A stretch of 64,000 bases of DNA from Streptomyces palmae (GTDB taxonomy: Bacteria > Actinomycetota > Actinomycetes > Streptomycetales > Streptomycetaceae), in contig NZ_SRID01000003.1 in assembly GCF_004684805.1 (NCBI RefSeq), positions 1 through 64,000 on the forward strand, read 5' to 3'. This document shows, piece by piece, positions 31,177 through 61,032 of this stretch. The position numbers and the translations under genes were made by a program. The notes beneath the pieces are model-generated. The model ran no database searches, was not told the origin of the DNA, and worked only from the letters and a program-made list of their open reading frames with translations. The stretch's first letter is position 1. Each line of letters begins with the position of its first letter.

Positions 31177-31178
31177 GC

Positions 31179-44779: not shown

Positions 44780-45562
44780 TCATTCCGTGTTCCGCAGATG
44801 TGCGGAGATCATCTTCCGCACCGCGGGTGACTCCACGATGTCGAAATGGCCGGCGCCCTCCACGAGTTCCAGCTCCGACCGCCGCCAGCTCGCGTGCAGC
44901 TCCTCGGCGTGCCCCGGCGGCACGAAGTCGTCGGCCGACCCGTGGATGACCAGTCCGGGCACGTCGAGCGTCCGGGCGGCCTCCAGCGCCGAGTACTCGG
45001 ACCAGACCGTCTCGCCGAAGCCGTCCTCGATGCGCTCGACCAGCCCCTGGACCCGTTCGCTGTCCAGCCCCTCCAGCTCGGCGAACTTCTCGACCAGGAA
45101 CATCGTGGAGGGCGGGGAGGAGATCGACACCACGGTCCGAGCGCCCACCTCGCCGTGCCAGGCGGTGAGGGCCCACAGCCCGCCCATGGAGTGGCAGACC
45201 ACCGCGTGGAGATCGGTGAGCCGGCCGTACAGTCCGCGCAGCACGGCGCGGATCTCGGTGGGATCACCCGCCGTGCCCAGGGCCTCGCCGTGGGCCGGCA
45301 CGTCGAACAGCACCACGCGATAGCCCTGGGCGAGGAGGTCCTCGGCGATGGCCACCATGCTTCCCAGGTTGGTGTGCAGGCCGTGGACGAGGAGAACGGT
45401 CGGTCCCTTGCCGCTCTGGAAGTACTTGTAGAACCGGCCGTTCACCTTGAGGGTGTGCGACTGGCACCGATTGAGGAACGCCTTCGCGAACGGATCGTGG
45501 GGAAGCTTCACGACCGCGTAGAACTTCTCGAAGAGGTCGTCCACGGATGGGGCTTGGCTCAC
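44780..45562 (-). CDS. Alpha/beta hydrolase 1 of the synthetase operon
   Basis: This 260-aa hydrolase has LLVHGLHTNLGSM near 57, the nucleophile elbow VVCHSMGGLWAL (Ser near 124), the acid in VIHGSADDFVPP and the His in GAGHFDIVES, making a complete triad. It is paralogous to the next gene in the operon, but the two are clearly different in sequence. GTG 45562 has GAGGA 9 nt upstream. It lies 54 nt after the oxygenase-like gene. Two hydrolases in one operon with a reductase-terminated synthetase is notable, because no thioesterase is needed for release. Confidence 0.87.
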   Translation of the reverse strand: MSQAPSVDDLFEKFYAVVKLPHDPFAKAFLNRCQSHTLKVNGRFYKYFQSGKGPTVLLVHGLHTNLGSMVAIAEDLLAQGYRVVLFDVPAHGEALGTAGDPTEIRAVLRGLYGRLTDLHAVVCHSMGGLWALTAWHGEVGARTVVSISSPPSTMFLVEKFAELEGLDSERVQGLVERIEDGFGETVWSEYSALEAARTLDVPGLVIHGSADDFVPPGHAEELHASWRRSELELVEGAGHFDIVESPAVRKMISAHLRNTE

Positions 45563-45616: not shown

Positions 45617-46927
45617 TCAGCCGCTCAGCGCGTCCAGGCACTGCCTCGCGCGGTCCGGGAGGACGTACTCCCCGTCCTTGGCGATGCGGTCGTACAGGTT
45701 CTCGACCCGCTCGTAGTGGGCGTCGAGGTTCTGGTCCAGCAGGTGGTACTCGGACTTGTTGTAGATGCCGAACTGGAGGTCCGTCATCAGTCCGAAGGGG
45801 TCGATGTCCGCCGCGCGCCGGGTGCCGCCGAACACGAGCCGCAGGAACTCGTCGACGCTCTCGTAACCGAGGGTGGCCAGGAGGAACTCGATCGACGCCC
45901 ACTTGCGCTTGACCTGGTAGGCACGCTCGTCCGGGTCGACGATGAAGTCCAGACCGGAGTCCATGCCCCGCGGGTAGTGCACCTTGTTGAAGCACCGCAG
46001 GTCGATGGTGAGGCGGTCCTTGGTGGTGAGGGGCAGGGTGCCGTCGGCGTGCGCGCGGTAGTTGTCGAAGACCAGCGCGTCGCCCACCCGGCTGTCGCAG
46101 TAGTAGCCGGGGGAGGGGGTGTCCGCGTAGGTCTTCGCCCAGTACATCGCCATGATGAAGTCCCGCACGGTGGGCAGGTCGATCTCGGACAGCTTCCCCT
46201 CCAGGAAGAGGTAGAGCGCCTTGTCGACCGCGGCCTTCTCCTCGCCCTCCAGGCCGTACTCGAGCATCTTCCCGTACACGTACTGCAGGTTCGGAGCCTC
46301 CAGCTCGGCCTCCTCGAAGATCACGAAGGGCTGCCGGTCCAGCGGCGTCGGCGTCAGCGCGGTGTGGAAGCTGCGGTACTCGGTGGGGAACCCGAGCTGC
46401 TTCTTCACCAGCGAGGGGATCTGCAGGGCGATCGAGCTGGCCGCGTGGGTGCCGTACGGCCGCTTGTTCGCCGGCACGATGAAGGCGTTCACCACCGCCG
46501 TCTCGACCTCGGGGAAGTGCTCCTGGACGATGTCCTGGTTCAGGTCGTAGAAGCGCTTGGCCGAGGGCACGAACAGCACGCAGTTCTCGAACATGGTGGA
46601 GACCGGGAAATAGGCTCCGAACGAGGCGTCGTTGAAGCTCTCCTGGATCATCGCCTGGCACCGCAGCTGGCGCGCCAGGTTCTCCGCGAGGTCGTCGTCC
46701 AGGTTCATCCGGACGACCTCGGTGGGGTGTGCCTCGGGCCGGAAGCAGCTGGGGTTCAGTGCCCGGTGCGGAGGCAGCCGGGACTCCATCTCCTCCTTGT
46801 CCGCCTGGTACTTGTCCAGCACCGGCGCCAGTTGCTCGGCGTGCGCGGCCGCGGAACTGTGCAGGAAGGTGCCGGTCTTCTGGTAGGTGCCGGTGACCGT
46901 GGTCTCGTCCACTGTTGCGTCACTCAT
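45617..46927 (-). CDS. Putative non-haem iron oxygenase-like protein
   Basis: I cannot place this 436-aa protein firmly. The segment SRVGDALVFDNYRAHADGT, followed by KDRLTIDLRCF, closely resembles the distal His/Arg region of Fe(II)/2-oxoglutarate oxygenases. A SFHTALTPTPLD stretch upstream might supply the first ligands. The length exceeds most such enzymes, and the N-terminal 100 residues are unassigned. It starts by an ATGA overlap with the synthetase stop, so it is translationally coupled. Hydroxylation or oxidative cleavage of the synthetase product is inferred. Confidence 0.55.
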   Translation of the reverse strand: MSDATVDETTVTGTYQKTGTFLHSSAAAHAEQLAPVLDKYQADKEEMESRLPPHRALNPSCFRPEAHPTEVVRMNLDDDLAENLARQLRCQAMIQESFNDASFGAYFPVSTMFENCVLFVPSAKRFYDLNQDIVQEHFPEVETAVVNAFIVPANKRPYGTHAASSIALQIPSLVKKQLGFPTEYRSFHTALTPTPLDRQPFVIFEEAELEAPNLQYVYGKMLEYGLEGEEKAAVDKALYLFLEGKLSEIDLPTVRDFIMAMYWAKTYADTPSPGYYCDSRVGDALVFDNYRAHADGTLPLTTKDRLTIDLRCFNKVHYPRGMDSGLDFIVDPDERAYQVKRKWASIEFLLATLGYESVDEFLRLVFGGTRRAADIDPFGLMTDLQFGIYNKSEYHLLDQNLDAHYERVENLYDRIAKDGEYVLPDRARQCLDALSG

Positions 46928-49900
46928 CGCTTCTCGATCTCCGCTCGGTCCGAAGAGGCTGGCGTGCGGTCAGCCGCGTACGTCGTGTTGATGCGGTCCA
47001 CGTAGTTCCGGACGAACTCCTCGTCGACCGGCGGGGACGGGTGGTGCTCCGCGCCCAGGACGGCGCCGCCCACCGGCAGGCTCGCGAACATGTCCGCCAG
47101 CCCCTCGGCCGTGAGGCCGTCCACCAGGGCGGCGATCCGGGCCAGCGGGCCCGTCGGGTGGGCGGCGGCGAAGTCCAGCGCCTGCTGCCGCCACGCGTCG
47201 AAGGGCACGATCTTCGCCCCGCCGCCGGCGGCGCCGACCATCTCGAAGAAGTGGTCGAAGGCCGGGGCGTCGGAGTTGACGAAGTCGTAGTCCCGGCCGA
47301 TGTGCTCCGGATCGCCGGTCACCATCGCGGCGATCGTCCGGCACAGGTAGTCGACCGGCAGCACCGCCGTGAGGTCGGCGTCCAGTGAGGGGAAGCTCCC
47401 CATCGCGAGGCAGCCGGTGATCAGGTTGTGCAGGAAGTCACCGCGGTCCAGCCGGAAGTGCCCGGTGCCGGTCGAGGCGCCCACGAACGGCAGGCGGTAC
47501 GTCGACGCCCTGGCGCCGCGCCAGCGGGCGGCCGCGACCATCTGCTCCGCCTGCCACTTGGAGGTCAGATAGCCGTACTCGCGGTCGTCCTCGCTGACCT
47601 CGTACCCCAGGTACTTGGGCAGCGTGGCGAAGGTGGAGACGAAGTGGACCGCCTTGCCGCGACCGCGCGAGGCCAGGCGCAGCGCCTCGTGGGTGCCGAC
47701 CACGTTGGGACCGATGTAGTCCTCCAGCGGCCGCATCCAGTCCACCAGCGCGCCGGAGTGACAGACGGCGTCCACCTGGTCCGCCAGCTGGTCGAAGACC
47801 TCCTCGTCCAGACCGAACAGCGGCCGGGTCAGATCGCCCACCACCGGGTTGAGCAGCGGCGCGTACTCCTCCTTCCACAGGCCGTAGCCCTCCAGCGTGC
47901 CGACCAGCCGCTCCATGGCCCCGCGGGCGTCGTCCGCCCGCACCAGGCAGTACGCGACCACCTCGGACGCGAGCAGCTCGTGCAGCAGGAAGGCCCCGAC
48001 GAACCCGGTGGCGCCGGTCACGAAGACAGCCTCCGGACGCGACGGCTCCGCGGCCGCGTTGTCGAAGCGCAGGTCGGGGTGGAGGCAGCCCTTCCGGGCG
48101 GTCGCCAGGTCGGGATCGGCGGCACCGGCCTCGTCCGCCCCGGGGGTCGCCGCCTCGGCGGCGGGCCCCGCCGGTGCGTCCAGCCCCGCCTCGCGCAGCT
48201 TGACCAGCAGGAACTCACCGAGCGACAGCAGGCTCGGGTGATCGAAGGCGATCTTGGCGGGCAGCGCCAGGCCGGTCAGGTCGGCCAGCTGGTTGCGCAT
48301 CAGCACCGCGGTGAGCGAGTCGATGCCGATGTCCTGCAGCGGCAGGTTGACGTCCACGTCCTCCGGTGAGGCGAAGCCCAGGGTCTTCGCCACCTCCTGG
48401 CGGACCATGTCCAGCACCACGGCCGCGTGCTCCTCGGGGGCGGCCTCGCTCAGCAGCTTGCGCAGGTCCGTACCGCCGCCGCCCCGGGCACGCCCGCCGG
48501 AGTTGCCGCTGAGCAGCGCGCGGAACAGCGGTGGGATGCCGCCGCGGCTCTCGTAGTAGTGCTGGACGCGGTTCAGGTCCAGCGCGGCGGCCATGGTCAG
48601 CGCGCGGCTGCTGCGGACCGCGAGTTCGACCAGCTCCAGGCCCTCCTCGGGCGCGAGCCGGTCCAGGCCCAGCTGGGCGAAGCGGGCGCGGTCCACCTCG
48701 CTGAGCCCGGCGGCCATGCCCTCGCCCTCCCAGGGGCCGAACGCCACCGAGGCGGCCGGCAGGCCCTTGGCCCGGCGCAGATGGGCCAGCGCGTCCAGGA
48801 ACGCGTTGGCGGCCGCGTAGTTGCCCTGGCCGGGGGCGCCCATGACGCTCGCGATGGAGGAGAACATCATGAAGAAGTCCAGCTCCAGGTCCTGCGTCAG
48901 CTGATGGAGATGCCACACGCCGTCCACCTTGGGCCGCAGCACCCTCTCGAACCGCTCCGGCGTCAGGGCCGTCAGCGCGCCGTCGTCCAGCACACCGGCC
49001 GCGTGCACCACACCGCGCAGCGGCCGCTCCTCGTCGAACTGGGCCATCACCGCGGTGACCTCGTCCAGGTCGGCCGCGTCGCAGGCCACCACGGTGGCCG
49101 TGGCGCCCAGCTCCGCCAGCTCGGCCACCAGCGACCGCGCCCCGGGTGTGTCCATCCCGCGACGGGAGGTCAGCACCAGATCGCGTACGCCGTGGGTGCC
49201 CGCCAGCCACCGGGCCACCCGCCTGCCCAGATCGCCGACGCCGCCCGAGACCAGCACCGCGCCGTCCGACCGGACGAACGGCCGCTGCTCCGACGGGACC
49301 AGCACCACCTTGCCCACATGCCGCGCCTGGGCGATGAAGCGCAACGCGTCGGAGGTGCGGGCCATGGGGAACGCGCGCACCGGCAGCGGCGCGAGGCTGC
49401 CCTCGGTGAACAGTTCGGCGAGGGAGACCAGCATCCGCTGGATCAGGTCGGGCCCGGCCTCGGGCAGGTTGTAGACCGTGTAGGTCACGCCCGGGTGGCT
49501 CTCGTCGATGGCGGACTGCTCGCGCACATCGATCTTGCCCATCTCCAGGAACCGGCCGCCGCGCCCCAGCAGGCCCAGGCTCGCGTCGATGAACTCCGTC
49601 GCCAGGGAGTTCAGCACGACGTCGAAGGGCTTGCCCGAGGCGCCGCCGTCGGCCCCGCCACCGCCGAAGTGCTCGACGAAGTCCAGGTCGCGCGAGGACG
49701 CGAGATGGGCGTCGTCCAGCCCCAGCTCCCGCAGCGCCGGCCACTTCGGCCGGCTGGCGGTGCCGTAGACCTCCGCGCCGTGGAGCCGCGCCAGCTGCAC
49801 GGCCGCCATGCCCACACCGCCGGCCGCGGCGTGCACCAGCACTCGCTCGCCCGGCCGCAGCGAGCCCAGTTCGTGCAGGCCGTACCAGGCGGTGAGGAAG

Positions 49901-52900
49901 GTCATCGGGATGGTGGCGGCCTCCTCGAAGCTGAGCCGCTCCGGCATCCGCACCACCTGGCGGGCGTCCGTGACGACCTCGGAGGCGAAGGAGCCGCGGG
50001 CCAGGCCCAGCACGGGGTCGCCGACCCTCACATGCTCCACGCTGCCGCCGACCTCGGTGACCACGCCGGCGAACTCCAGGCCGAAGGCGGGGATCTCCAC
50101 CATGCCGAGGGCGTTGAGCACGTCGAGGAAGTTCACTCCGGCGGCCTTCACCTCGGCCCGTATCTCGCCCGGCGCCACGGTCCGCCCCGGCAGGGTCTTG
50201 ACCGTCAGCGGTTCGTCCAGGCGGCCCTTGGCGGTGATCTCCAGCTGCCACCGCTCCCCGGCGGGAATCTCCAGGTCGCCGGCGGAGCCCGCGCGCAGCA
50301 GCTGCGGCACGAGCACCTCGCCGTGGCGCAGGGCGCACTCCGGCTCGGACTCCAGCATCAACGCCGCGGGCAGCGCGGCGCGGTCCGCCTCCTCCTCGCC
50401 CAGGTCGATCAGGCGCAGGCTCAGCTCGGGGTGCTCGTTGCGGGCGGTGCGCATCAGACCCCACAGCGGACCGGCGCCCGGGTTGGCGACCAGGTCGTCC
50501 GCGCCGGTGCCCACCGCGTGGCGGGTGACCCACACCAGCGGCGTACGGAACTCCGTCGCGACCGTCTGCTGGAGCTGCTCCAGCGCCTTCGCGGTGAAGG
50601 CGTGCGCCTGGGACGGGACGTCCGCCGCGGAGTCCCACAGGCACACCAGGCCGTCCAGGTCCTCGGCGTCCTCCAGCTCCTGGACCTTGATCAGCTGAAT
50701 GCCGGCCCGCGCCAGGGTGGTCCTGACCTCCTTGGCCCAGGCCACGTCCCCGGCGGGGGTCATCAGGCCCCAGGAGCCGCCCATCTCGACGTTCCCGGTG
50801 TCGATCTGGCGCCAGTCGACGTCGAACTGGAAGCGGTCCACGCCCGCCGCGGCCAGTCGGCGCAGCACCGCCCGGTCCACCCGGCGCGCATGGAGCCGGT
50901 GGAGCCGGCCGACGCACGCGCCGTCTGAGTCGTGGATGTCGAGCGAGGCCCAGAACTCACCGTCGCCCAGCTCGAAGTCGGCGACCCGGACCCAGATCTC
51001 CGACAGGCCCCTGACCCGCAGCGACAGGCGCTCGGCCTCGAACGGCACGAACAGGTCGTCGCCGGTCTTCTTCAGCAGCCGCTGGGTCAGCAGCAGCGAG
51101 TGCATGGCCGAGTCGAGCAGGGCCGGGTGGAGGACGTACCCGGCGGCGGACTGCTCCGCCCCCTCCGGCAGCGCGGCCCTCGCCCACACCTCCCCGTCGA
51201 GGTGCCAGGCCTCCTTGATGCCCTGGAAGGTCGGGCCGTAGCCGTAGCCGAGGGCGTCCAGGTCGCGGTAGAGAGCGGACGCGTCGAGCTGCTCGGCGCC
51301 CTTGGGCGGGACGGCCACGGTGCGGCCGGCCTCGGCCTCGGCGGGCACGATGCGGCCCTCGGCGTGCAGCTGCCAGGCGCCGTCCTCCCCCTCGGGCGAG
51401 CTGTACACCTGGACGGGACGGCCCGCGCCGGCCGCCGCGCCCACCGTGACCTGTAGCCGGACCGGGACCCCGGAGGCGAGCACCAGGGGCGCGGCGATGA
51501 CCACGTCCGACAGGTCCCACTCGCCGTCCTGCGCGGCGTCCCCCGCGGCCCGCATGGCCTCGAAGAACGCCGTACCCGGCATGAGGACCGCGTCCATCAC
51601 CCGGTGCTCCTGCACCCAGACCGGCTGGTCCGCCGCCACCACGTTGGTGAACAGCGACATCTCGGTGCCGGCGACCTCCACACCGCCGCCCAGGAGGGCG
51701 TGGTCGGTGGCGTTCAGGCCGGCGCCGACCTCGCGGGTCAGCGGCGGCTCGAACCAGAAGCGCTCCCGCTGGAAGGCGTAGGTCGGCAGCGCGACCCGCT
51801 GGCCCCCGAAGGGCGCGAAGTAGCCCTGCCAGTCGACCGCCACCCCCCGCACATGGAGTTCCGCCAGGCTCTTGAGGACGACCGAGGCGCCGTCCTGGCC
51901 CGCGACGCAGGAGGGCACCCAGGACACCGGACCCTCGTCGGCCAGGCAGTCCGCGCCCATACCGGACAGCACGGGCTGCGGACCGAGCTCCAGGAAGGTG
52001 TTCGCACCCTCCCGGCGCAGGCTGCGCATGCCCTCGCTGAAGCGGACCGCGTGGCGTGCCTGGCGGACCCAGTACTCGGGCCGCTCCATCTCGCCCGGTG
52101 CGGCCGGCTCGCCGGTGAGGCTGCTGACCAGGGGAATCGTCGGCGGGTGGAACCGGACGGTGTCCGCCACCGCCCGGAACTCGGCGAGCATGCCGTCCAT
52201 GTGGTGGGAGTGGAAGGCGTGCGACACCGTCAGCCGCTTGGCCTTGCGGCCCCGCGCCGTGAAGTGGGCCGTGATCGCCTCGATCGCGTCCTCGTCCCCG
52301 GAGACGACGGTCTGGGTGGGCGTGTTGAGCCCGGCGACGTCCGCCTTGCCGGTCAGCCCCAGGGTGTCCAGGGCCGCCGCGGCCTCCTCGCCGCCGACCT
52401 CCAGCGAGACCATGGCGCCGCGGCTCGGCAGGGCCTGCATCAACCGGCCGCGCGCCGCGACCAGCCGGCAGGCGTCGGGCAGGTCCAGCATTCCGGCCAC
52501 ATGGGCCGCGGCCAGCTCACCGATGCTGTGGCCGAGCAGCAGCTCGGGCCGTACGCCCCAGCTCTCCCACAGCCGCCACAGCGCCACTTCCAGGGCGAAC
52601 AGCGCGGGTTGGGTGTAGTCGGTCCGGTGCAGCAGGGACGATTCCTCGCTGCCGTCTTCGGCCCACACCACCTGGAGCAGGGGCTTGTCCAGCTCGGTGA
52701 AGTGGGCGGCGATCGCGTCCAGCGCCTCCCGGAAGACGGGGTAGACCTCGTAGAGCTCCCGGCCCATGCCCGCCAGCTGACTGCCCTGGCCGGTGAAGAG
52801 GAGGGCCAGCCGGGGATCCTCGGTGTGGTTTCCGGTGCGTACGGACTCGGCGGGCAGTTCCCCGGTGCGGGCGAAGGAGGCCAGCCTGTCGAGGAGTTCG

Positions 52901-55900
52901 CCCTTGTCCTTGGCCGTCAGGACCAGCCGCCGGCGGAAGTGGGTGCGGGTGGTCGCCAGGGAGCGGGCCACGTCGCCGAGGCGGTCCTGGATGTTCATGC
53001 CCATGTGCAGGTGGAGGTTCTCCACCTGCCGACGCAGGGCGGTGTCGGTGTAGCCGGACACCAGGAAGGGGAGCGCGGGCGGCAGCGGGGCCGGCGCGGC
53101 CTCCTCGCCGTCCCGGGGGCTGAACCGCGGCGGCTCCTCGACGATGACATGGGCGTTGGTGCCGCCGATGCCGAAGGAGCTGACGCCCGCGCGGCGCGGT
53201 ACGTCCTTCGCCGGCCAGGGACGCTGCTCGCGGACCAGCGCCATCCTGGCGCCCGCCCAGTCCACGGCCGGGGTGGGCTCGGTGACGTGCAGGGTGCGGG
53301 GCAGCGCGTCGTGCTGCATGGCCAGGACGACCTTCATCACGCCGGCCAGACCGGCGGCGGCCTGGGTGTGGCCCAGGTTGGACTTGGCCGAACCGACCCA
53401 CAGCGGCGCCTCGTCCCCGTGGCTGCCGCCGAAGACCTCCGCCAGCGCGGTGCCCTCGATGGGGTCGCCCAGCTTGGTGCCGGTGCCGTGCGCCTCCAGG
53501 TAGTCGATGTCGCCCGGCTGCAGCCCCGAGGCGGACAGGGCCGCGCGGATGACCCGCTGCTGGGCCGGGCCGCTGGGGGTGGTCAGGCTGGCGCTGTGGC
53601 CGTCGTGGTTGACGGCGGTCCCGCGCAGCACGGCCAGCACGGGGTCGCCGTCCCGCTGGGCGTCGGACAGCCGCTTGAGGATGACCGCCGCGGAGCCCTC
53701 GCTCCAGCCGGTGCCGTCGGTGTCGGAGGAGAACGACCGGCACCGGCCGTCCGCCGACATGCCCCGCAGCCTGCTGAACTCGACGTGCAGCTCGGGGGTG
53801 AGCATCAGGCTCACCCCGGCCGACACCGCCAGATCGCACTCGCCGCTGCGCAGCGCGTTGCAGGCCAGATGGGTGGTGACCAGCGAGGACGAGCAGGCGG
53901 TGTCCAGGGTGAGGGTCGGACCCTCCAGACCGAACACATAGGACACCCGGCCGGACATGGTGCCGCCCGCGGAACCCGGACCCACATAGCCGTCCAGGTC
54001 GGACAGCGCGCCGGCCATGGTCAGGCCGTACTCGTGGTAGGCCGAGCTCTTGCCGACGCCGATGAACGCGCCGGTCAGGCTGCCGCGCAGCTGCTCCATG
54101 GTGTAGCCGGCGCGCTCGAAGGCCTCCCAGGTGGTCTCCAGGACCATGCGCTGCATGGGGTCCAGGGAGCGGGCCTCGCGGGGCGAGATGCCGAAGAAGG
54201 GCGCGTCGAACAGGTCGATGGGGGTGACGAACCCGCCGCTGCTGCAGTACGACTTGCCGAGCGCGTCCGGGTCGGGGTCGTAGAGGGCCTCGGCGTCCCA
54301 GCGGTCCTTGGGCACCTCGACGATCCCGTCGCCGCCGCGCTCCAGCAGCTCCCAGTACTCCTCGGGGGTGTTGGCGTCGCCGGGGAGCCGGCAGGCCATG
54401 CCGATGATGGCGATCGGCTCGTCGTCCACGGCCCGGCGGCGGGCGGGGACGACCTCCTGGCCGGTCTTGGTGTCGCCGGCCAGGTACGCGGCCAGGGTCT
54501 TGATGGTGAAGTGCTCGAAGAGCTTGGCCCCGAAGAGCGGGCGCCCCAGGAGTTGTTCCAGCCTCGTCTGGACCCGGACGACCCGCAGCGAGTTGCCGCC
54601 GATCTCGAAGAAGTTCTCGTTGACGCCGATCCGGTCGTGGCCGAGCACCTCCGACCAGATGGCCATGATGTCCCGCTCCAGCTCGTTGGCGGGCCTGGCG
54701 GTGGCGTCGACCTCCACCACGGGGTCCGGCAGCGCGCTGTGGTCGATCTTGCCGTTCGGCGTCAGCGGAAGCTCGTCCAGCTCCACGATGAAGGCGGGCA
54801 CCATGTAGTCCGGCAGCCGCTCCGCCAGCCAGGGGCGCAGTACGCGGTGGAGCGGGGTGGCGGGCGGTTCGCCCACCGCGGGCACGTTGGCGTACCCGGT
54901 GAGCGCGCCCCGGTCCATCGGCTCGGCGGGGCGCAGCCTGAGGTCCGGGGGGCCCGGGGTCTGACCGGGCTGCCAGAACAGGGCGTCGCACCGCCAGGTG
55001 TCGCCCGAGCGGCTGGGCATCAGGGCGAGCTCCAGACCGGCCTCGCGGGCCAGGTCGGCGAGGGCGCCGGGGTCGATCCAGGACGTGGGCGCCTGCGGGG
55101 CCCCGTCCAGCGCCGCCCAGACCCGGCCGCACACCTCGCCCAGCCGGCCGTTGGGGATGTCGTTCACCCGCAGCGGCTGGTCGGCCAGGGTGCCCAGCCG
55201 GGCCCGCAGCGCGTCCAGGTCCAGGCCGTCGTGGAGCCAGCTCTGCTCGGCGGCCGGGGTGCGGGGCCGCGCGCCCTCGCCGATGTGCAGCGTGACGTCG
55301 TAGCGGTAGCGCGTCATCTCGTTGGCGTAGGAGCCCTCGCGCAGGGTGATGTCCACCCGGGTGATCTGCGGGAAGAGGCTCGGCAGATCGGCGAAGTAGT
55401 CGCGGCTGAGCACCAGTTCGCGCTCCGAGCGCACGCCGCGCTCGGTGAGGCGGGCCAGCTCCTCGGCGGAGGTCCGGTCGCCCTGGCGGAACTGCGCCAC
55501 GTCCGCGTGGAAGACCTCCAGCAGCGACAGGTCGCGTACGTCGCCGAGGAACACCCGGCCGTCGGTGACCGCCTTGGTCGCCCACTCCAGGACCGAGGTC
55601 AGGTAGTCGACGCTCGGGAAGTACTGGGCCACCGAGTTGATGACCACGGTGTCGAAGGCGCCCTCGGCCACCTCGGGCAGCTCGTGTGCCGCGCGCTGCT
55701 CGCAGACCACCTGGGGCAGGGCGGACAGGTGCCGGCGGGTGATCTCCACGGCCCGGGCGGAGGCGTCCACGGCGTGGTACGTGCGGCAGTGCGGCGCGAG
55801 GCTGAACAGCATCAGGCCGCTGCCGGAGCCGATCTCGAACACGTCCCGCGGCGCGTACGAGAGGATGCGCCGCACGGATCCGCGCTGCCAGTCGCGCATC

Positions 55901-58900
55901 TCCCCGGTGGAGAACGGCAGGCCGTCGTAGCTGTTGCGCCAGCCCGCCAGGTTGAAGGTGGCGTCCTCGGCGCCGTCCTCGTAGGCCCGGTCCCAGGCGG
56001 CGGCCCACTCGGCCAGGGCCGTGCCCTGGTCCGCCTGTGCCCGGTCCGGATCCGCGGCCCGCGCCGACTCGCGCACGCAGTAGGCCACCAGCTGCTCGTC
56101 GCGGCCGACCACCGTGGCGCGGCGGACGTCCTCGTGGCGGCCGAGGACGGCCTCGACGTCGGCCGGCTCGATGCGGTGGCCGCGCAGCTTGACCTGGCGG
56201 TCGTTGCGCCCCAGCAGACTCAGCTTGCCGGGTTCCACGAAGCGGGCCAGGTCGCCGGTCCGGTAGAGGGTGCCGGGATGGAAGGGGTTGTCCGGGAAGC
56301 GCAGCCGGGTCTGCTCGGGGTCGTTGCGGTAGCCGCGCGCCACCCCGGCGCCCCCGACACACAGCTCACCGGGGAAGCCGAGCGGCACCGGCGACAGGTT
56401 CTCGTCGAGGACGTAGACCTGGGTGCCGGCGATCGGGCCGCCGATGAGGATGCCCTCGTCGTCGGCGGACCGCACCTCCCAGGCCGTCGACCACACGGTG
56501 GTCTCGGTGGGGCCGTACATGTTCCACACCGAGGCCCCGGTGGCCACCAGCCGGTCGGCCAGGTGCGCGGGGAGTGCCTCGCCGCCGCAGAGGATCTTCG
56601 TCAGGCTGGGGGTGCCCTGCCAGCCCCCCTCCAGCAGCAGCTGCCAGGTGGCGGGGGTGCCCTGCATCATGGTGACGGCGTGGCGCTCCATCAGCTCGCC
56701 CAGGGCCTTGGCGTCCATGACCTCGTGGGCCTGGGCGATGACCGTGGTCCCGCCGCAGAGCAGGGGCAGGAACAGCTCCAGCACCGCGATGTCGAAGGAC
56801 ACGGTGGTGACGGCCAGCAGCCGGTCCGAGGCCTCGCACCCGGGCTGTGCGCGCATCGAGGTCAGGAAGTTGCACAGCGCCCCGTGGCTGATCTCGACGC
56901 CCTTGGGGCGGCCGGTGGAGCCGGAGGTGTAGATGACGTACGCCAGGTCCTCGGCGTCCACCTCGACCGAGGGGGCGGACGGCCCGCCGTCCGGACCCGC
57001 CTCGACGCTCAGGCAGCGGTCCTGCCAGGCGGCCAGGGCGGAGGGCGCGGCGGCGGGGGTGACGACCAGCCGGGGCTCGGCGTCCTCGATCATCTGGCGG
57101 ACGCGCTCCGCCGGGAACTTCGGGTCGACGGGCACATAGGCGGCGCCCGTCTTCATGGCCGCCAGCAGGGCCACCACCAGGTCGATCGAGCGGTCCAGCG
57201 CCACGCCGACCAGGTCTCCGCGGCCCACCCCGCGCTCGATCAGGGCGTGGGCGAGGCGGTTGGCGCGGGCGTCGAGCTCGGCGTAGGTCAGGCTGGTGCC
57301 CGCGCAGACCAGCGCCGTGTCCTCGGCATGGCCTCGCGCGGTCCGCTCGAAGAGCCGGTGCAGGCTCTCGCCCGGCGCGGCGTCCTCGGCCGGGACCTCG
57401 AACCCGTCGATCAGGGTGGCGCGTTCCTCGGCGGTGAGGACGTCCACGGCTGCCGGCAGCCGGTCCGCGTCGGAGGCCAGCCGCTCGCACCAGGCGCTGA
57501 ACTGCTCCGCCAGACGGGCGGCGTCCCGGGCCCGCAGACGGGTGGCGTCGTAGTGGAAGGCGACGGTGCCGTCCTCCTGGAGGTGCACTTCCAGCCTCGG
57601 GCGAAGGCCCGCCGCCTCGGGGTCCCGAGCGCCCCAGGAGACCAGTACGTCCGGCATCGGCGCGCCGCCGCTCCACTGCTGCCCGAGCGCCTCGTCACGG
57701 CCGACGAGGTCGCGGCGGAGCCACCCCCGCTCCTGTCCCAGGGTGAACTCACGGCTCAGCGCCCGCAGGTTCTCCGCGATCGTCCGGTCGGCCTCGACGC
57801 GGCACGGCAGCGGGAGCCAGGCGGAGAACAGCTCCCTGTACTCCGGGTCGACCCCCTCGCGGGGGGCGGCCATCGCCAGGAGGAGGTCGCTCCCGCCGCC
57901 GGCGCGGCTGAGGAACGTGCCCAGGGCGGCGGCCAGTCGGGCCGCGGATGCCCCCGTACCGTCCTCCGGGACCGGGAGGGGGCACCGTACGAGGACGGGA
58001 GCCGCCTCGGTCTCGCCTCCGGCGCGGGGCGGCGTGTGGGGCAGGCGGTAGGGCCGGCCCCGCTCGGTCAGCCGCGCCCGCCAGCGGTTCTCGGCCTTGG
58101 ACGCCTTGAGGCCCGCCTCGGTCAGGCGGGTCCGCGCGTCCTCGTCGGGGGAGCCGAGGAGCGTGCCGGGCCCGATCCCGTGGGCCTCGGCGAGGGCCGC
58201 GACGGTGTGCGCCTCGCCTTCCAGGGTGGTCAACCGGGTCAGCCACACGCTTCCGGAACCCGCGGCCACCCGCAGGCCCGAGGCCTCGTCGCGGGAGAGG
58301 ACCGTGCCGGGCGCCGCCCCCTCGGCCGATGCCTCGCACCGGGCCTCCCGGACGGCGTAGAAGTGCCCGCCGAGGCTCACCTTGGGCCACACCAGCGGGC
58401 TGCCGAACGGACCGTAGTCGGTGGCCCGCACCATGGCGGTGATCCGTTCCGCGGGCAGGCTCCAGTCGATCAGCCCCTCGGCGGCCGGCTGGGCGTGCCG
58501 CGAGAAGTAGCGCCGGCCGGCCGCGTCCTGGGGCGTCGCGGTCTCGCGGCCCTCCGCGATCTCGTCGAGCAGCTCGCCCACGCTGGCGACGGCGGCGTCA
58601 TCGCACTTCAAACCCAGTGAAAGAGCGGTGTCCTCGGGGCCGATCGGCACCGGCAGGCGCTTGAGCACCTCGCCGCCGTCGACGAGTTCGGCCATGCGGT
58701 GCCAGGTGATGCCGTACGCACTCGCGCCCTCGGCGATGGCCCAGGACGGCGCGTGCAGACCCGCGTACTCGGGGAGCGGTCCGTAGTGGTAGTTGATGCT
58801 CGCGCGGCTCGCGCATGCCAGCAAGGCATCGGGAACCACCGCGTAGTTGCCGATGCTGAGCAGGAGGTCGCAGGACAACCCGGGTGCCAGCGCCACGGCC

Positions 58901-59064
58901 TCGTCGAGCCCATGGTGCGGGATGCCCGCCTTGACCGCCCAGGCCCGGGCCGTGGCGTCCGGCGTCACCACGGCCTTGATCCGGTGCCCCTTCGCCATGA
59001 GGACCTCGCCGCAGCGAGCGAGCACACTTCCACCACCGACCAGCACAGAACTCAAAGAAGTCAT
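46924..59064 (-). CDS. Hybrid NRPS-PKS: FT-(half C)-A[MT]-PCP-KS-AT-DH-ER-KR-ACP-TR
   Basis: A single protein of about 4,046 aa. Approximate domains: formyltransferase 1-300 (INYHYGPLPEYAG); C-terminal half of a condensation domain 340-560, no HHxxxDG; adenylation 570-1000 (YTSGSTGRPKG), split after A8 by a methyltransferase 1030-1330 (EIGSGSGLML), resuming 1405-1450 (LPDYMVPAF, NGKID); PCP 1465-1530 (IGGNSLR); KS 1545-1975 (DTACSSS); AT 2090-2425 (GHSIGE; HAFHSH, malonyl type); DH 2445-2730; ER 2940-3255 (HAAAGGVGMAAVQ); KR 3260-3480 (LDD motif); ACP 3545-3620 (DIGIDSL); thioester reductase 3675-4030 (VTGATGFVG, YLTSK). The A pocket reads DILQLGMVWK, glycine-like. ATG 59064 is favoured over 59070 by GGGGAGG spacing. 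Confidence 0.93.
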   Translation of the reverse strand: MTSLSSVLVGGGSVLARCGEVLMAKGHRIKAVVTPDATARAWAVKAGIPHHGLDEAVALAPGLSCDLLLSIGNYAVVPDALLACASRASINYHYGPLPEYAGLHAPSWAIAEGASAYGITWHRMAELVDGGEVLKRLPVPIGPEDTALSLGLKCDDAAVASVGELLDEIAEGRETATPQDAAGRRYFSRHAQPAAEGLIDWSLPAERITAMVRATDYGPFGSPLVWPKVSLGGHFYAVREARCEASAEGAAPGTVLSRDEASGLRVAAGSGSVWLTRLTTLEGEAHTVAALAEAHGIGPGTLLGSPDEDARTRLTEAGLKASKAENRWRARLTERGRPYRLPHTPPRAGGETEAAPVLVRCPLPVPEDGTGASAARLAAALGTFLSRAGGGSDLLLAMAAPREGVDPEYRELFSAWLPLPCRVEADRTIAENLRALSREFTLGQERGWLRRDLVGRDEALGQQWSGGAPMPDVLVSWGARDPEAAGLRPRLEVHLQEDGTVAFHYDATRLRARDAARLAEQFSAWCERLASDADRLPAAVDVLTAEERATLIDGFEVPAEDAAPGESLHRLFERTARGHAEDTALVCAGTSLTYAELDARANRLAHALIERGVGRGDLVGVALDRSIDLVVALLAAMKTGAAYVPVDPKFPAERVRQMIEDAEPRLVVTPAAAPSALAAWQDRCLSVEAGPDGGPSAPSVEVDAEDLAYVIYTSGSTGRPKGVEISHGALCNFLTSMRAQPGCEASDRLLAVTTVSFDIAVLELFLPLLCGGTTVIAQAHEVMDAKALGELMERHAVTMMQGTPATWQLLLEGGWQGTPSLTKILCGGEALPAHLADRLVATGASVWNMYGPTETTVWSTAWEVRSADDEGILIGGPIAGTQVYVLDENLSPVPLGFPGELCVGGAGVARGYRNDPEQTRLRFPDNPFHPGTLYRTGDLARFVEPGKLSLLGRNDRQVKLRGHRIEPADVEAVLGRHEDVRRATVVGRDEQLVAYCVRESARAADPDRAQADQGTALAEWAAAWDRAYEDGAEDATFNLAGWRNSYDGLPFSTGEMRDWQRGSVRRILSYAPRDVFEIGSGSGLMLFSLAPHCRTYHAVDASARAVEITRRHLSALPQVVCEQRAAHELPEVAEGAFDTVVINSVAQYFPSVDYLTSVLEWATKAVTDGRVFLGDVRDLSLLEVFHADVAQFRQGDRTSAEELARLTERGVRSERELVLSRDYFADLPSLFPQITRVDITLREGSYANEMTRYRYDVTLHIGEGARPRTPAAEQSWLHDGLDLDALRARLGTLADQPLRVNDIPNGRLGEVCGRVWAALDGAPQAPTSWIDPGALADLAREAGLELALMPSRSGDTWRCDALFWQPGQTPGPPDLRLRPAEPMDRGALTGYANVPAVGEPPATPLHRVLRPWLAERLPDYMVPAFIVELDELPLTPNGKIDHSALPDPVVEVDATARPANELERDIMAIWSEVLGHDRIGVNENFFEIGGNSLRVVRVQTRLEQLLGRPLFGAKLFEHFTIKTLAAYLAGDTKTGQEVVPARRRAVDDEPIAIIGMACRLPGDANTPEEYWELLERGGDGIVEVPKDRWDAEALYDPDPDALGKSYCSSGGFVTPIDLFDAPFFGISPREARSLDPMQRMVLETTWEAFERAGYTMEQLRGSLTGAFIGVGKSSAYHEYGLTMAGALSDLDGYVGPGSAGGTMSGRVSYVFGLEGPTLTLDTACSSSLVTTHLACNALRSGECDLAVSAGVSLMLTPELHVEFSRLRGMSADGRCRSFSSDTDGTGWSEGSAAVILKRLSDAQRDGDPVLAVLRGTAVNHDGHSASLTTPSGPAQQRVIRAALSASGLQPGDIDYLEAHGTGTKLGDPIEGTALAEVFGGSHGDEAPLWVGSAKSNLGHTQAAAGLAGVMKVVLAMQHDALPRTLHVTEPTPAVDWAGARMALVREQRPWPAKDVPRRAGVSSFGIGGTNAHVIVEEPPRFSPRDGEEAAPAPLPPALPFLVSGYTDTALRRQVENLHLHMGMNIQDRLGDVARSLATTRTHFRRRLVLTAKDKGELLDRLASFARTGELPAESVRTGNHTEDPRLALLFTGQGSQLAGMGRELYEVYPVFREALDAIAAHFTELDKPLLQVVWAEDGSEESSLLHRTDYTQPALFALEVALWRLWESWGVRPELLLGHSIGELAAAHVAGMLDLPDACRLVAARGRLMQALPSRGAMVSLEVGGEEAAAALDTLGLTGKADVAGLNTPTQTVVSGDEDAIEAITAHFTARGRKAKRLTVSHAFHSHHMDGMLAEFRAVADTVRFHPPTIPLVSSLTGEPAAPGEMERPEYWVRQARHAVRFSEGMRSLRREGANTFLELGPQPVLSGMGADCLADEGPVSWVPSCVAGQDGASVVLKSLAELHVRGVAVDWQGYFAPFGGQRVALPTYAFQRERFWFEPPLTREVGAGLNATDHALLGGGVEVAGTEMSLFTNVVAADQPVWVQEHRVMDAVLMPGTAFFEAMRAAGDAAQDGEWDLSDVVIAAPLVLASGVPVRLQVTVGAAAGAGRPVQVYSSPEGEDGAWQLHAEGRIVPAEAEAGRTVAVPPKGAEQLDASALYRDLDALGYGYGPTFQGIKEAWHLDGEVWARAALPEGAEQSAAGYVLHPALLDSAMHSLLLTQRLLKKTGDDLFVPFEAERLSLRVRGLSEIWVRVADFELGDGEFWASLDIHDSDGACVGRLHRLHARRVDRAVLRRLAAAGVDRFQFDVDWRQIDTGNVEMGGSWGLMTPAGDVAWAKEVRTTLARAGIQLIKVQELEDAEDLDGLVCLWDSAADVPSQAHAFTAKALEQLQQTVATEFRTPLVWVTRHAVGTGADDLVANPGAGPLWGLMRTARNEHPELSLRLIDLGEEEADRAALPAALMLESEPECALRHGEVLVPQLLRAGSAGDLEIPAGERWQLEITAKGRLDEPLTVKTLPGRTVAPGEIRAEVKAAGVNFLDVLNALGMVEIPAFGLEFAGVVTEVGGSVEHVRVGDPVLGLARGSFASEVVTDARQVVRMPERLSFEEAATIPMTFLTAWYGLHELGSLRPGERVLVHAAAGGVGMAAVQLARLHGAEVYGTASRPKWPALRELGLDDAHLASSRDLDFVEHFGGGGADGGASGKPFDVVLNSLATEFIDASLGLLGRGGRFLEMGKIDVREQSAIDESHPGVTYTVYNLPEAGPDLIQRMLVSLAELFTEGSLAPLPVRAFPMARTSDALRFIAQARHVGKVVLVPSEQRPFVRSDGAVLVSGGVGDLGRRVARWLAGTHGVRDLVLTSRRGMDTPGARSLVAELAELGATATVVACDAADLDEVTAVMAQFDEERPLRGVVHAAGVLDDGALTALTPERFERVLRPKVDGVWHLHQLTQDLELDFFMMFSSIASVMGAPGQGNYAAANAFLDALAHLRRAKGLPAASVAFGPWEGEGMAAGLSEVDRARFAQLGLDRLAPEEGLELVELAVRSSRALTMAAALDLNRVQHYYESRGGIPPLFRALLSGNSGGRARGGGGTDLRKLLSEAAPEEHAAVVLDMVRQEVAKTLGFASPEDVDVNLPLQDIGIDSLTAVLMRNQLADLTGLALPAKIAFDHPSLLSLGEFLLVKLREAGLDAPAGPAAEAATPGADEAGAADPDLATARKGCLHPDLRFDNAAAEPSRPEAVFVTGATGFVGAFLLHELLASEVVAYCLVRADDARGAMERLVGTLEGYGLWKEEYAPLLNPVVGDLTRPLFGLDEEVFDQLADQVDAVCHSGALVDWMRPLEDYIGPNVVGTHEALRLASRGRGKAVHFVSTFATLPKYLGYEVSEDDREYGYLTSKWQAEQMVAAARWRGARASTYRLPFVGASTGTGHFRLDRGDFLHNLITGCLAMGSFPSLDADLTAVLPVDYLCRTIAAMVTGDPEHIGRDYDFVNSDAPAFDHFFEMVGAAGGGAKIVPFDAWRQQALDFAAAHPTGPLARIAALVDGLTAEGLADMFASLPVGGAVLGAEHHPSPPVDEEFVRNYVDRINTTYAADRTPASSDRAEIEKR

Positions 59065-59574
59065 CGTCATGCCTCCCCGTAGTCACCCGCAGAGCGTTCG
59101 ATGAGCGCAACCGATTCCGGAACCAGGGCAGCGGCACCCGAGGCAGCCCGATGAAGGCATGCCAGGTGCCGGATCCAAGAGCGCGTCGCACAGGGCAAAA
59201 CCCCGTGTTCCCGTTTCACATCCCCCCGAGATTCAGCGACGCCTGCCTTTCGGCATTTTCGTGGAATCAGCTGCGCCGTAAGTCGTTTGCGCTGTCAGGA
59301 ATGAAGTGCCAATACGCCTCGGGGGCATTCCTGGCAGACCAGGACTTCCCCAAGGCGTCACGCCACATCATTGGCGTGCCCCGAGAGCCACCGCAAGGCA
59401 TGGCACCAAGATCGGTCCCACGAGTCAGAGTGATTGTCATCACACGTGTCGATTACGCACTTCTGCCCGTCACCGACGTCGGGCGGGCAGACTTGCATCG
59501 GTCCAACCACCCGTTCGCCATGCCGAGTTGGACCGCAGGCGAGTACGACGACGCACACGACCCGAAGGGCTGGC
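59065..59574. promoter_or_regulatory. Divergent promoter region of synthetase and MFS genes
   Basis: No gene is seen in this 510-bp, less GC-rich region. It contains several operator-like symmetries: CAGGAATG (59296-59303) with CATTCCTG (59326-59333); the odd palindrome GGCGT-C-ACGCC (59354-59364); ACACGTGT (59442-59449); and GGTCCAAC (59500-59507) with GTTGGACC (59527-59534), the last ending 40 nt before the MFS start. The cluster has no regulator in the window, so these sites probably serve a factor encoded elsewhere. Confidence 0.5.
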
Positions 59575-61032
59575 ATGTCCGATTCGGCCGAGCGCACGCG
59601 CAATCCGGAGAAGGTCGACCCAGCTCGCGTCCTGGCGCTGTGCAGCGGCGCGAGCTTTATGGCGTTCCTGGACCTCTCGATCATCAGCATCGCCTTCCCC
59701 GACATTCTGGATGACTTTCCAGGCACCTCGCTCAACACCATGACCTGGATCCTCAGTGGTTACTCGGTCATGCTGGCGGCGGTCCTCACCCTCGCGGGAC
59801 GGATCGCGGACAGCGTCGGCCGGCGAACCGTCTTCCTGTGGTCGCTGGCCGCCTTCACCGCCTCCTCGCTCGTGTGCGCCCTGGCGCCGTCCGTCGGATG
59901 GCTCGTCGCCGCGCGGTTCGTCCAGGGCGGCGCGGCCGGAGGCATGATCCCGGCGGCCCTGGGCCTCATCCTCTCCACCACGCCGCGGGAGCGCATCGCC
60001 CGAGCGGTCGGGACCTGGTCCGCGGTGGCCGGCTTCTCCGCCGTCTTCGGGCCGGCCGCCGGCGGGCTGCTGCTGCGCGCCTTCGGCTGGCGCTCGGTGT
60101 TCTACGTCAACCTGCCGCTGTGCGGGGCGATGCTGATCGCCGCCGTGGTGATGCTGCCCCGGCAGCTGCGCGGCACCGGCGACCGGCTGCCGGACGCCGT
60201 GGGAAGCGTCGCGCTCGCCCTGGGCATCGCCGGGGTGGTGAGCGCGCTCACCGAGGGGGACGCCTGGGGGTGGGGCGATGTGCGCACGATCGGACTCGGC
60301 GGGGCCGGGATCGCCCTGGTCGTCGGCGCCGTACTGCGTTCGCGTACGCACCGGGCCCCGGCCCTGGAGACGACGGTCTGGCGCAGCCCCGTCTTCCGGA
60401 CCGCCAACGTCGGCCTCGGCCTGCTCAACATGACGATGTACGCGTGGATGCTGGCCGCCCCGCTGTTCGCCGCCGACATCTGGCACTGGTCGGTCCTGGA
60501 GACGGCCGGGGCGCTCAGCGTCGGCGCGGTCTCCTCGATGGTCGGCTCGCTGGCCGCCGGCCGGCTCACCCGGCCGGCGGCCCAGGTGAAGGTCACGGTG
60601 CTGGGCGCGCTCTCCTTCGCGGGCAGCAACGCGATCTGGGCGTCCAGCCTGTTCGGATCCACGCCGAACTTCTGGGGCGCCTGGCTGCCGGCCGCGATCC
60701 TCGGCGGAGGCGGGCTCGGCCTCGCCATCACCTGCCTGTCCACCATGGCGGCCGGGACCGTGCCCCCGCTGAAGTTCGCGGGCGGGCTCGGCATGACGTT
60801 GACCGTGCGCCAGGTCGGTGGTGCGATCGGCGTCGCCGGATTCGCCTCGATCACGGCGTCGAGCGCGGACCCCGGCAGCGTCTCGTCCTTCCACCATGTG
60901 TATGTCGCCGCGATGATCGTCAATATCGTGGGCGCGCTGGTCATCTGCACGATGCTCCGCACGCTGCGGACCCCTCGGCCCTCCGGGACGGACGCGGCGC
61001 CCGTGGCCGACGGCGCCGCGCCGGTCTCCTGA
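59575..61032 (+). CDS. MFS drug/product exporter (14-TMS DHA2 type)
   Basis: This 485-aa transporter has about 14 membrane helices. Motif A-like LAGRIADSVGRRTVF lies between helices 2 and 3, and the motif C region is FSAVFGPAAGGLLL in helix 5. These mark a proton-driven exporter of the DHA2/EmrB type. It is divergent from the giant synthetase and likely exports its product or gives self-resistance. ATG 59575 has AAGGGC upstream; a longer in-frame start at 59434 would add an unlikely Ser/Thr-rich leader. A 23-bp bidirectional terminator follows. Confidence 0.92.
   Translation: MSDSAERTRNPEKVDPARVLALCSGASFMAFLDLSIISIAFPDILDDFPGTSLNTMTWILSGYSVMLAAVLTLAGRIADSVGRRTVFLWSLAAFTASSLVCALAPSVGWLVAARFVQGGAAGGMIPAALGLILSTTPRERIARAVGTWSAVAGFSAVFGPAAGGLLLRAFGWRSVFYVNLPLCGAMLIAAVVMLPRQLRGTGDRLPDAVGSVALALGIAGVVSALTEGDAWGWGDVRTIGLGGAGIALVVGAVLRSRTHRAPALETTVWRSPVFRTANVGLGLLNMTMYAWMLAAPLFAADIWHWSVLETAGALSVGAVSSMVGSLAAGRLTRPAAQVKVTVLGALSFAGSNAIWASSLFGSTPNFWGAWLPAAILGGGGLGLAITCLSTMAAGTVPPLKFAGGLGMTLTVRQVGGAIGVAGFASITASSADPGSVSSFHHVYVAAMIVNIVGALVICTMLRTLRTPRPSGTDAAPVADGAAPVS

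What the first reader, a model, noticed from the sequence alone, without database searches (positions are those of the whole stretch)
46924..59064. One-protein FT-A(Gly)-MT-PCP-PKS-TR assembly line for a reductively released C4 amino unit
Directly visible: formyltransferase, adenylation domain with inserted methyltransferase, PCP, one fully reducing malonyl-type PKS module and a terminal thioester reductase in a single ORF. Known logic: FT domains formylate the starter amino acid (as in LgrA), and TR domains release aldehydes or alcohols. Inference: the product is 4-(N-formyl-N-methylamino)butanal or its alcohol, or the beta-hydroxy/ene variant if DH or ER is inactive. I do not know a described pathway with this exact order.
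Basis: partly seen in the sequence, partly recalled or inferred. Interest (0 to 1): 0.88.

Follow-up and report, generated by a model that had tools for sequence, protein, structure and literature searches.

The report
Conserved single-protein assembly line, unknown product
A single giant Streptomyces enzyme appears built to turn glycine plus one small carbon unit into a capped four-carbon amino aldehyde or alcohol; closely similar enzymes, beside one uncharacterised partner protein, turn up in very distant bacteria, but the product is not yet known.

Summary
One 4048-residue ORF (59070-46924, minus) carries FT-A-MT-PCP-KS-AT-DH-ER-KR-ACP-TR. Its A-domain code, DILQLGMVWK, is one residue from DILQLGMIWK, reported as glycine-activating (PMC12283262). 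The FT, KS, AT, DH, KR and TR active-site residues checked are in place. The "one-protein" picture is incomplete: beside it lie an orphan 436-residue protein (P0002), two alpha/beta hydrolases, a divergent MFS exporter and a thiolase. I collected 27 clusters by searching with P0002, from Streptomyces to Nocardia, Actinospica, Achromobacter, Pseudovibrio and two MAGs. The code is identical in all 25 that are fully readable. ER is present in 24 of 27; a thiolase is present in 23 of those 24 and in none of the three without ER. P0002 has no Pfam, NCBIfam or PDB sequence match; weak profile and structural evidence suggests a divergent Fe(II)/2-oxoglutarate enzyme with HxA in place of HxD/E. Best reading: the line makes 4-(N-formyl-N-methylamino)butyryl-ACP, released by TR as aldehyde or alcohol. 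The product is inferred, not shown. Ten paper searches of an open-licence library listed no pathway of this order. New variant of a known kind.

The parts
46924..59070 (-). NRPS-PKS megasynthase, 4048 aa (start at 59070 or 59064)
58051..59070 (-). formyltransferase domain (N and C parts); Asn93, His95, Asp131
   Evidence: Pfam; ArnA FT best PDB match; triad identical in 26 of 26 readable clusters of 27
57436..58017 (-). stretch of about 195 aa between FT and A, no Pfam match; by eye like the C-terminal half of a condensation domain
   Evidence: 0 families at E 0.01
56056..57393 (-). adenylation domain, code DILQLGMVWK (last K in the C-terminal subdomain)
   Evidence: code compared with PMC12283262
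55201..55893 (-). methyltransferase inserted in the A domain
54721..54873 (-). A-domain C-terminal subdomain after the insertion
54466..54693 (-). PCP
   Evidence: Ser in 26 of 26 readable clusters
53131..54429 (-). ketosynthase (Cys-His-His present)
51826..52818 (-). acyltransferase, GHSIGE and HAFH (malonyl-type motif, recalled)
50851..51708 (-). dehydratase (His and Asp present; HxxxD where the usual motif, recalled, is HxxxG)
49291..50223 (-). enoylreductase (active site not checked residue by residue)
   Evidence: absent in 3 of 27 clusters
48721..49278 (-). ketoreductase (Ser-Tyr-Asn, LDD)
48151..48378 (-). ACP
   Evidence: (second PP-binding stretch)
47101..48048 (-). terminal thioester reductase (Ser-Tyr-Lys)
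45617..46927 (-). P0002, orphan 436-aa protein, overlaps the megasynthase stop by 4 bases; possibly a divergent Fe(II)/2OG enzyme with HxA
44780..45562 (-). alpha/beta hydrolase 1
   Evidence: in 22 of 27 clusters
43978..44769 (-). alpha/beta hydrolase 2
   Evidence: in 20 of 27 clusters
59434..61032 (+). MFS exporter, divergently transcribed (5' end of the ORF probably over-long)
   Evidence: homologue of at least 60% identity in 14 of 27 clusters, the window included
61145..62434 (-). thiolase (acetyl-CoA acetyltransferase type), beside a 72-73% identical copy elsewhere in the genome

Best explanation
The protein is a complete, self-releasing NRPS-PKS line. The A domain loads glycine on the PCP, the inserted methyltransferase N-methylates it and the FT domain N-formylates it, giving N-formylsarcosyl-PCP. 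The PKS module adds one malonyl unit and fully reduces it to 4-(N-formyl-N-methylamino)butyryl-ACP, and TR releases it as 4-(N-formyl-N-methylamino)butanal (C6H11NO2) or the alcohol (C6H13NO2). The formyl cap would also stop the 4-amino thioester from closing to a lactam before reduction. P0002, perhaps a divergent Fe(II)/2OG enzyme, modifies the chain or the released product; an exporter removes it. Shown: domain order, active-site residues, code, conservation. Inferred: every catalytic step, the order of methylation and formylation, the product and the role of each partner gene.
For: Domain order in one frame. Code DILQLGMVWK identical in the 25 fully readable clusters of 27; one more has a single unread position and one is frameshifted. 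DILQLGMIWK is reported as glycine-activating in PMC12283262 (passages seen). FT triad in 26 of 26 readable clusters, aligned with ArnA. MT inserted as in 5wmm, query 11-469 on chain 475-924. TR closest to MxaA, E 1.5e-55. The KS, AT, DH, ACP and TR catalytic residues checked do not vary in the readable clusters; KR Ser is Thr in one. Of 32 window ORFs scanned with Pfam no other shows a PKS module, PCP or condensation domain; the only other AMP-binding protein (2335-3981) stands alone about 43 kb away.
Against: No product, transcript or activity is known. A single PKS module can act iteratively, which sequence does not exclude. The code is one residue off the published one. Three of 27 clusters lack ER, so the saturated product cannot hold for all. 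In Nocardia the line is split over two ORFs within the A domain and in Streptacidiphilus it is frameshifted. The thiolase and the hydrolases have no place in this simple scheme.
Confidence: 0.68

Rival explanations
1. Thiolase as self-resistance (not exclusive of the best explanation): the released electrophile, or its P0002-modified form, inhibits the housekeeping acetyl-CoA acetyltransferase, and the cluster carries a resistant second copy.
For: At my thresholds a thiolase of one of three types lies in 23 of 24 ER-containing clusters and 0 of 3 ER-less ones. The window's copy is 72-73% identical to a copy elsewhere in its genome; G009, a genome of the same genus without P0002, has a 72% copy and no closer one. 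In a tree with 10 of the cluster copies these are not one clade: four label changes, two forced by well-supported branches. One of four exporter types is seen in 25 of 27 clusters.
Against: A biosynthetic thiolase could also be recruited repeatedly, and the tree does not exclude one recruitment followed by reversal. The Achromobacter and Pseudovibrio copies are of other types on long, unsure branches. In the Solirubrobacteraceae MAG only a fragment is seen. Inhibition is not known.
Confidence: 0.3
2. Route to an N-methylpyrrolidine: a hydrolase removes the formyl group, 4-(methylamino)butanal closes to N-methyl-1-pyrrolinium, and acetoacetyl-CoA made by the thiolase adds to it, giving a hygrine-like alkaloid, convergent with the plant tropane route.
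For: Carbon skeleton of the predicted aldehyde; two alpha/beta hydrolases with Ser/Asp/His motifs by eye; thiolase tied to the ER-containing form. N-methylpyrrolinium is the plant tropane precursor (PMC6731253, start of abstract in the listing).
Against: Both hydrolases are absent in two clusters that have ER and thiolase (S. G340, Actinospica). No deformylase family match. The listing (15 of 23 papers shown) held no bacterial pathway by title. Purely chemical reasoning.
Confidence: 0.1
3. The line does not stop after one extension (iterative module), or the released aldehyde is only a building block for another pathway.
For: In Streptomyces sp. DSM 110735 an SHMT/fluorothreonine-transaldolase-like enzyme follows P0002 (TIGR04506 6.5e-55, below its cut-off; Pfam SHMT 3e-23) and NRPS-like ORFs are nearby, as if the aldehyde were condensed with an amino acid.
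Against: Seen in 1 of 27 clusters, and that one lacks ER. The window has no such neighbour.
Confidence: 0.2

Closest known systems
Conglobatin CongA / oxazolomycin OzmO loading modules (FT-A(Gly)-PCP feeding a PKS)
   Same: Formylated glycine starter handed to a KS; in Streptomyces (PMC4504003, passages seen).
   Different: Those make an oxazole, with CongE/OzmP proposed for cyclodehydration, and feed multi-module lines; here an inserted MT is present (an N-methyl group would block an oxazole, inference) and one module ends in TR. The CongE motif SGGKDS occurs in no frame of the window.
Linear gramicidin LgrA
   Same: FT domain at the N-terminus of the starter (passage in PMC4504003); LgrA chains are the best PDB matches of the A domain.
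   Different: Peptide line without PKS (recalled); LgrA is not among the 42 FT matches, where ArnA leads.
Rhizopodin, tolytoxin and relatives (N-formyl-N-methyl amine terminus; recalled)
   Same: N-formyl-N-methyl amine end of a polyketide (recalled); an F domain in rhizopodin is stated in PMC4504003.
   Different: Tolytoxin lines are trans-AT (PMC5772238, passages); this protein has its own AT and a single PKS module.
Interrupted A domain 5wmm (TioS, name recalled)
   Same: A-MT-A with the MT in the same place.
   Different: No FT in the matched chain; peptide context (recalled).
MxaA thioester reductase (myxalamid, recalled)
   Same: Closest solved TR.
   Different: Very different upstream chain; 4-electron release by MxaA is recalled.
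PhyH-type Fe(II)/2OG enzymes (FtmOx1, AsqJ, CurA halogenase) and ThoJ, for P0002
   Same: Many of the structural matches of two low-confidence models and a local profile match at the distal-His segment.
   Different: No significant sequence match; conserved HxA instead of HxD/E; all scores weak.

Membership tests
FT-initiated NRPS/PKS starter module | FT domain with Asn-His-Asp triad before A-PCP | tested here: met
   (26 of 26 readable clusters of 27)
FT-initiated NRPS/PKS starter module | formyl transfer from N10-formyl-THF to the PCP-bound amino acid | not testable with these tools
   needs an enzyme assay
Glycine-activating A domain | published glycine specificity code | tested here: inconclusive
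   DILQLGMVWK against DILQLGMIWK, 9 of 10 positions; positions placed against the GrsA pattern from memory
Interrupted N-methylating A domain | MT inserted between A subdomains | tested here: met
   alignment over the whole insertion with 5wmm. That it methylates nitrogen is inferred
cis-AT fully reducing PKS module | KS-AT-DH-ER-KR-ACP with active-site residues | tested here: met
   (ER active site not checked residue by residue)
Reductive (TR) release | C-terminal NADPH-binding TR with Ser/Thr-Tyr-Lys | tested here: met
   number of electrons not testable
trans-AT actin-binding macrolide lines (rhizopodin, tolytoxin) | no integrated AT, many modules | tested here: not met
   integrated AT 2091-2411, one PKS module
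Oxazole-forming formylglycine lines (oxazolomycin, conglobatin) | CongE/OzmP-like partner with SGGKDS | tested here: not met
   motif absent from all six frames of the window; partner genes are P0002, hydrolases, MFS, thiolase
Fe(II)/2-oxoglutarate enzymes (P0002) | sequence or fold match | tested here: inconclusive
   no Pfam, NCBIfam or PDB sequence match; hhalign with 29 PhyH sequences E 0.019, probability 2.4%, at 277-310; VIA-align: ThoJ Z 6.1 first; 25 of 45 rows Fe/2OG, Z up to 4.9, two unrelated rows above; Foldseek alone nothing
Fe(II)/2-oxoglutarate oxygenases (P0002) | HxD/E upstream of the distal His | tested here: not met
   no invariant HxD/E upstream of His293 in 20 aligned members; invariant His161-x-Ala163, kept in a 31% identical homologue. 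That His161 and His293 are metal ligands is inferred

The most novel reading that the evidence does not exclude
P0002 founds a new branch of Fe(II)/2OG halogenases (HxA in place of HxD/E) dedicated to this line. It halogenates the N-formyl-N-methylaminobutyryl chain on its carrier, or the released aldehyde, and the exported halogenated C4 amino aldehyde or alcohol is a thiolase inhibitor against which the cluster keeps a resistant thiolase. The whole unit has spread between phyla.
Probability: 0.1. Interest if true: 0.85.

Novelty: new variant of a known kind. Interest (0 to 1): 0.58.

Why it matters
If the reading is right, one protein makes a defined, capped C4 amino aldehyde from glycine and malonate: a compact model for formylated starters, inserted N-methylation and reductive release in a single chain. 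The unchanged code and active sites from Streptomyces to Pseudovibrio suggest a product useful enough to be kept after transfer between phyla. P0002 is an unassigned protein family tied to it, and the extra thiolase gives a concrete, testable guess at a target.

Tried and rejected
Tried without result: P0002 against Pfam, NCBIfam and PDB sequences. Two AlphaFold models (mean pLDDT 63.9 and 63.4) gave nothing at E 0.001 by Foldseek. hhalign of P0002 with single TauD and PhyH reads was no better than with an unrelated window hydrolase (best E 0.061 for the TauD set, 0.069 for the hydrolase; the third TauD read was evidently in the wrong frame). In one search the PF13640 set (23 sequences) scored 17.6, also above its reversed (12.7) and shuffled (9.7-13.1) versions, but at residues 352-403, where I see no 2OG motif: so beating shuffles is by itself weak evidence, for the PhyH set too. 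My first guess that His188-Thr-Ala190 is the metal motif was dropped, because a 31% identical homologue keeps His161-x-Ala163 but not His188. Viral contigs gave no relative. Paper searches returned nothing; 29 (15 of 24 papers shown), 55 (2), 56 (15 of 23), 68 (1), 87 (8 of 1,602) and 91 (5) listed no pathway of this order by title or start of abstract.

Rejected: chance or misassembly (same order in many genomes); a trans-AT or oxazole line; recent transfer read from base composition (the G+C of the PKS is near that of its surroundings in Pseudovibrio and A. pestifer, so transfer is inferred from distribution and identity alone). The idea that a hydrolase must deformylate the product was weakened by two ER-plus-thiolase clusters without either hydrolase.

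Limits: the 27 clusters were found through P0002, so 'PKS always with P0002' is circular. The reverse was tested only on plasmids, where the single FT match above 60% identity (290 records matched in all) also has P0002. The identity thresholds are mine. Absences hold only for the stretches fetched; in the MAGs above all they may be contig ends. Streptacidiphilus was kept in the counts although its PKS and P0002 are frameshifted. Alignment A2 holds P0002 and 19 of the 23 loci; the tree holds 10 of the cluster thiolases.

Full report
Observation. The window is contig C352 of a genome of 7.5 Mb in 801 contigs. The genus is inferred to be Streptomyces: G220 bears the same genus label and its contig has the length of the S. 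mutomycini record. The ORF at 59070-46924 on the minus strand is 4048 aa with the codon-position G+C of other called genes. Pfam and NCBIfam give FT-A-MT-A'-PCP-KS-AT-DH-ER-KR-ACP-TR.

What the domains say. FT: best PDB match is the ArnA formyltransferase domain; Asn93, His95 and Asp131 align with its Asn-x-His...Asp (that these are catalytic is recalled). A: closest to the A domains of LgrA. I placed the ten code positions by motif against the GrsA pattern from memory: DILQLGMVWK. PMC12283262 reports DILQLGMIWK in four glycine-activating domains (passages). MT: the stretch from the A domain through the MT to the A C-terminal subdomain aligns end to end with 5wmm. AT carries HAFH, the malonyl-type motif (recalled). 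TR: closest solved relative MxaA, E 1.5e-55.

The cluster. Downstream on the same strand are P0002 (436 aa, overlapping by 4 bases) and two alpha/beta hydrolases; upstream are a divergent MFS exporter and a thiolase. A P0002 search of 394 genomes of the family hit 8, the window's own included. A scan of genome contigs gave 23 loci: Streptomyces, Streptacidiphilus, Actinospica, Nocardia, a Solirubrobacteraceae MAG, a Ramlibacter MAG, five Achromobacter and Pseudovibrio. The plasmid collection gave one, a linear plasmid of Streptomyces sp. Caat 7-52, where thiolase, MFS, PKS, 'hypothetical protein' and two hydrolases stand together. Without overlaps these make 27 clusters: 23, G263 and G340, the plasmid and the window.

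Conservation. The FT and linker region was found in 22 of 22 genomes tested (the frameshifted Streptacidiphilus was not among them). The order was read in the long loci, some of which end within the gene; in Nocardia the line is split over two ORFs within the A domain. Over 27 clusters: the code is identical in the 25 that are fully readable (S. NBC_00083 has one unread position, Streptacidiphilus is frameshifted); FT triad 26 of 26 readable; the DH motif is HxxxD in 23 and HxxxG in 4; the KR Ser is Thr in S. iranensis; the other checked residues do not vary where readable. Identity to the window in the seven proteobacterial clusters is 77-81% for KS and 67-71% for P0002.

Variants. ER is missing in three (S. 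antioxidans, S. iranensis, S. DSM 110735); in the stretches fetched these also lack the thiolase and both hydrolases and share another MFS gene. A thiolase of one of three types is in 23 of 24 ER-containing clusters (in the Solirubrobacteraceae MAG as a fragment; not seen in the Ramlibacter MAG) and in 0 of 3 others; hydrolase 1 in 22 of 27, hydrolase 2 in 20 of 27; a Rieske oxygenase in the 7 proteobacterial clusters, a LysE-type exporter in 6 of these; one of four exporter types in 25 of 27. In DSM 110735 an SHMT/transaldolase-like enzyme follows P0002.

P0002. No curated family or PDB sequence matches. Of 396 sampled genomes of the phylum only the window's own has it; of 385 of the Pseudovibrio class, that one and one with a distant homologue; of 399 of the Achromobacter order, one. 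Three weak lines suggest a PhyH-type Fe(II)/2OG enzyme. First, hhalign of 21 P0002 relatives with 29 PhyH sequences puts its best local match on 277-310, the segment with His293 and Arg305: E 0.019, probability 2.4%, score 24.6, against 16.6 for the reversed alignment and 11.7-13.5 for five shuffles. A PF13640 set also beat its shuffles but in a place that makes no sense, so this test is soft. Second, VIA-align of the full model ranks ThoJ, a non-heme monooxygenase, first at Z 6.1 with 162 residues, the next row (GIG2, DUF1479) being 3.3. Third, for the trimmed model 25 of 45 rows are Fe/2OG enzymes, six distinct proteins, with Z at most 4.9; the two top rows, Z 5.4 and 5.1, are unrelated. The tool warns that Z under 8 can be a common arrangement, and both models are of low confidence. 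The 31% identical homologue keeps Gly159-Thr160-His161-x-Ala163, His293-x-Asp295, Arg305 and Arg311. If His161 is the first ligand, the acidic ligand is missing, as in Fe/2OG halogenases (recalled).

Thiolase. The genome has a second copy at 72-73% identity, and G009, without P0002, has a 72% copy and no closer one. In a maximum-likelihood tree of 24 proteins the 10 cluster copies need four label changes, two of them forced by well-supported branches. Recruitment more than once is the simplest reading, though one gain with a reversal is not excluded, and the Achromobacter and Pseudovibrio branches are too long to place. This suits either a self-resistance copy or a repeatedly recruited biosynthetic enzyme; it does not decide.

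Mechanism. The cap may also prevent lactam formation on the ACP. All chemistry is inferred. What follows release is open: P0002 action, thiolase as target copy or as partner, hydrolases optional. Of 32 window ORFs scanned with Pfam none offers another PKS module, PCP or condensation domain.

Known or new. Formylated glycine starters feeding a PKS are known (PMC4504003, passages), as are interrupted A domains and TR release. Ten paper searches of an open-licence library listed no line with this order, judged from titles and starts of abstracts of the papers shown. MIBiG was not searched. I file it as a new variant of a known kind, with an orphan partner family as the most unusual part.

Noticed in passing
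window 60-25061: A separate group of biosynthetic-looking genes: AMP-ligase, amine oxidase, MMPL, UbiA prenyltransferase, MocA-type oxidoreductases, DXP synthase, two DegT aminotransferases, UDP-sugar dehydrogenase and a BTAD regulator.
   Followed up: no
L040:11366-12559 (+), L077/L063: In Streptomyces sp. DSM 110735 an SHMT/fluorothreonine-transaldolase-like enzyme, then an ATP-grasp-like ORF and MFS genes (by eye), follow the ER-less megasynthase and P0002; NRPS-like ORFs lie nearby.
   Followed up: partly
L097:1357-2985 (-); L099/L100: A 31% identical P0002 relative in a 1.3-Mb genome of the Pseudovibrio class (locus 34% G+C), beside a 2648-aa ORF; no PKS seen by eye in 40 kb.
   Followed up: partly
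L066, L067, L068: Separate clusters with FT-A-PCP proteins (FT 37-42% identical) next to KS proteins; in L066 and L067 no AT matched, as in trans-AT lines.
   Followed up: no
L057:5601-8381 (-): In Achromobacter pestifer a CoA-ligase-like protein and a different thiolase, and by eye a TRAP transporter, are divergent from the megasynthase.
   Followed up: partly
window 34621-36384 (-): Group II intron reverse transcriptase/maturase with HNH (Pfam).
   Followed up: no
window 42751-43749 (+): CHAP plus peptidoglycan-binding protein, lysin-like.
   Followed up: no
window 37601-40318 (+): Protein with an N-terminal caspase-like (Peptidase_C14) domain and a long helical-looking remainder (remainder by eye).
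   Followed up: no
window 26347-33239 (-): DUF3686 ATPase-like ORF next to a flotillin-like protein at 31179-33239 (by eye; no Pfam match at 0.001).
   Followed up: no
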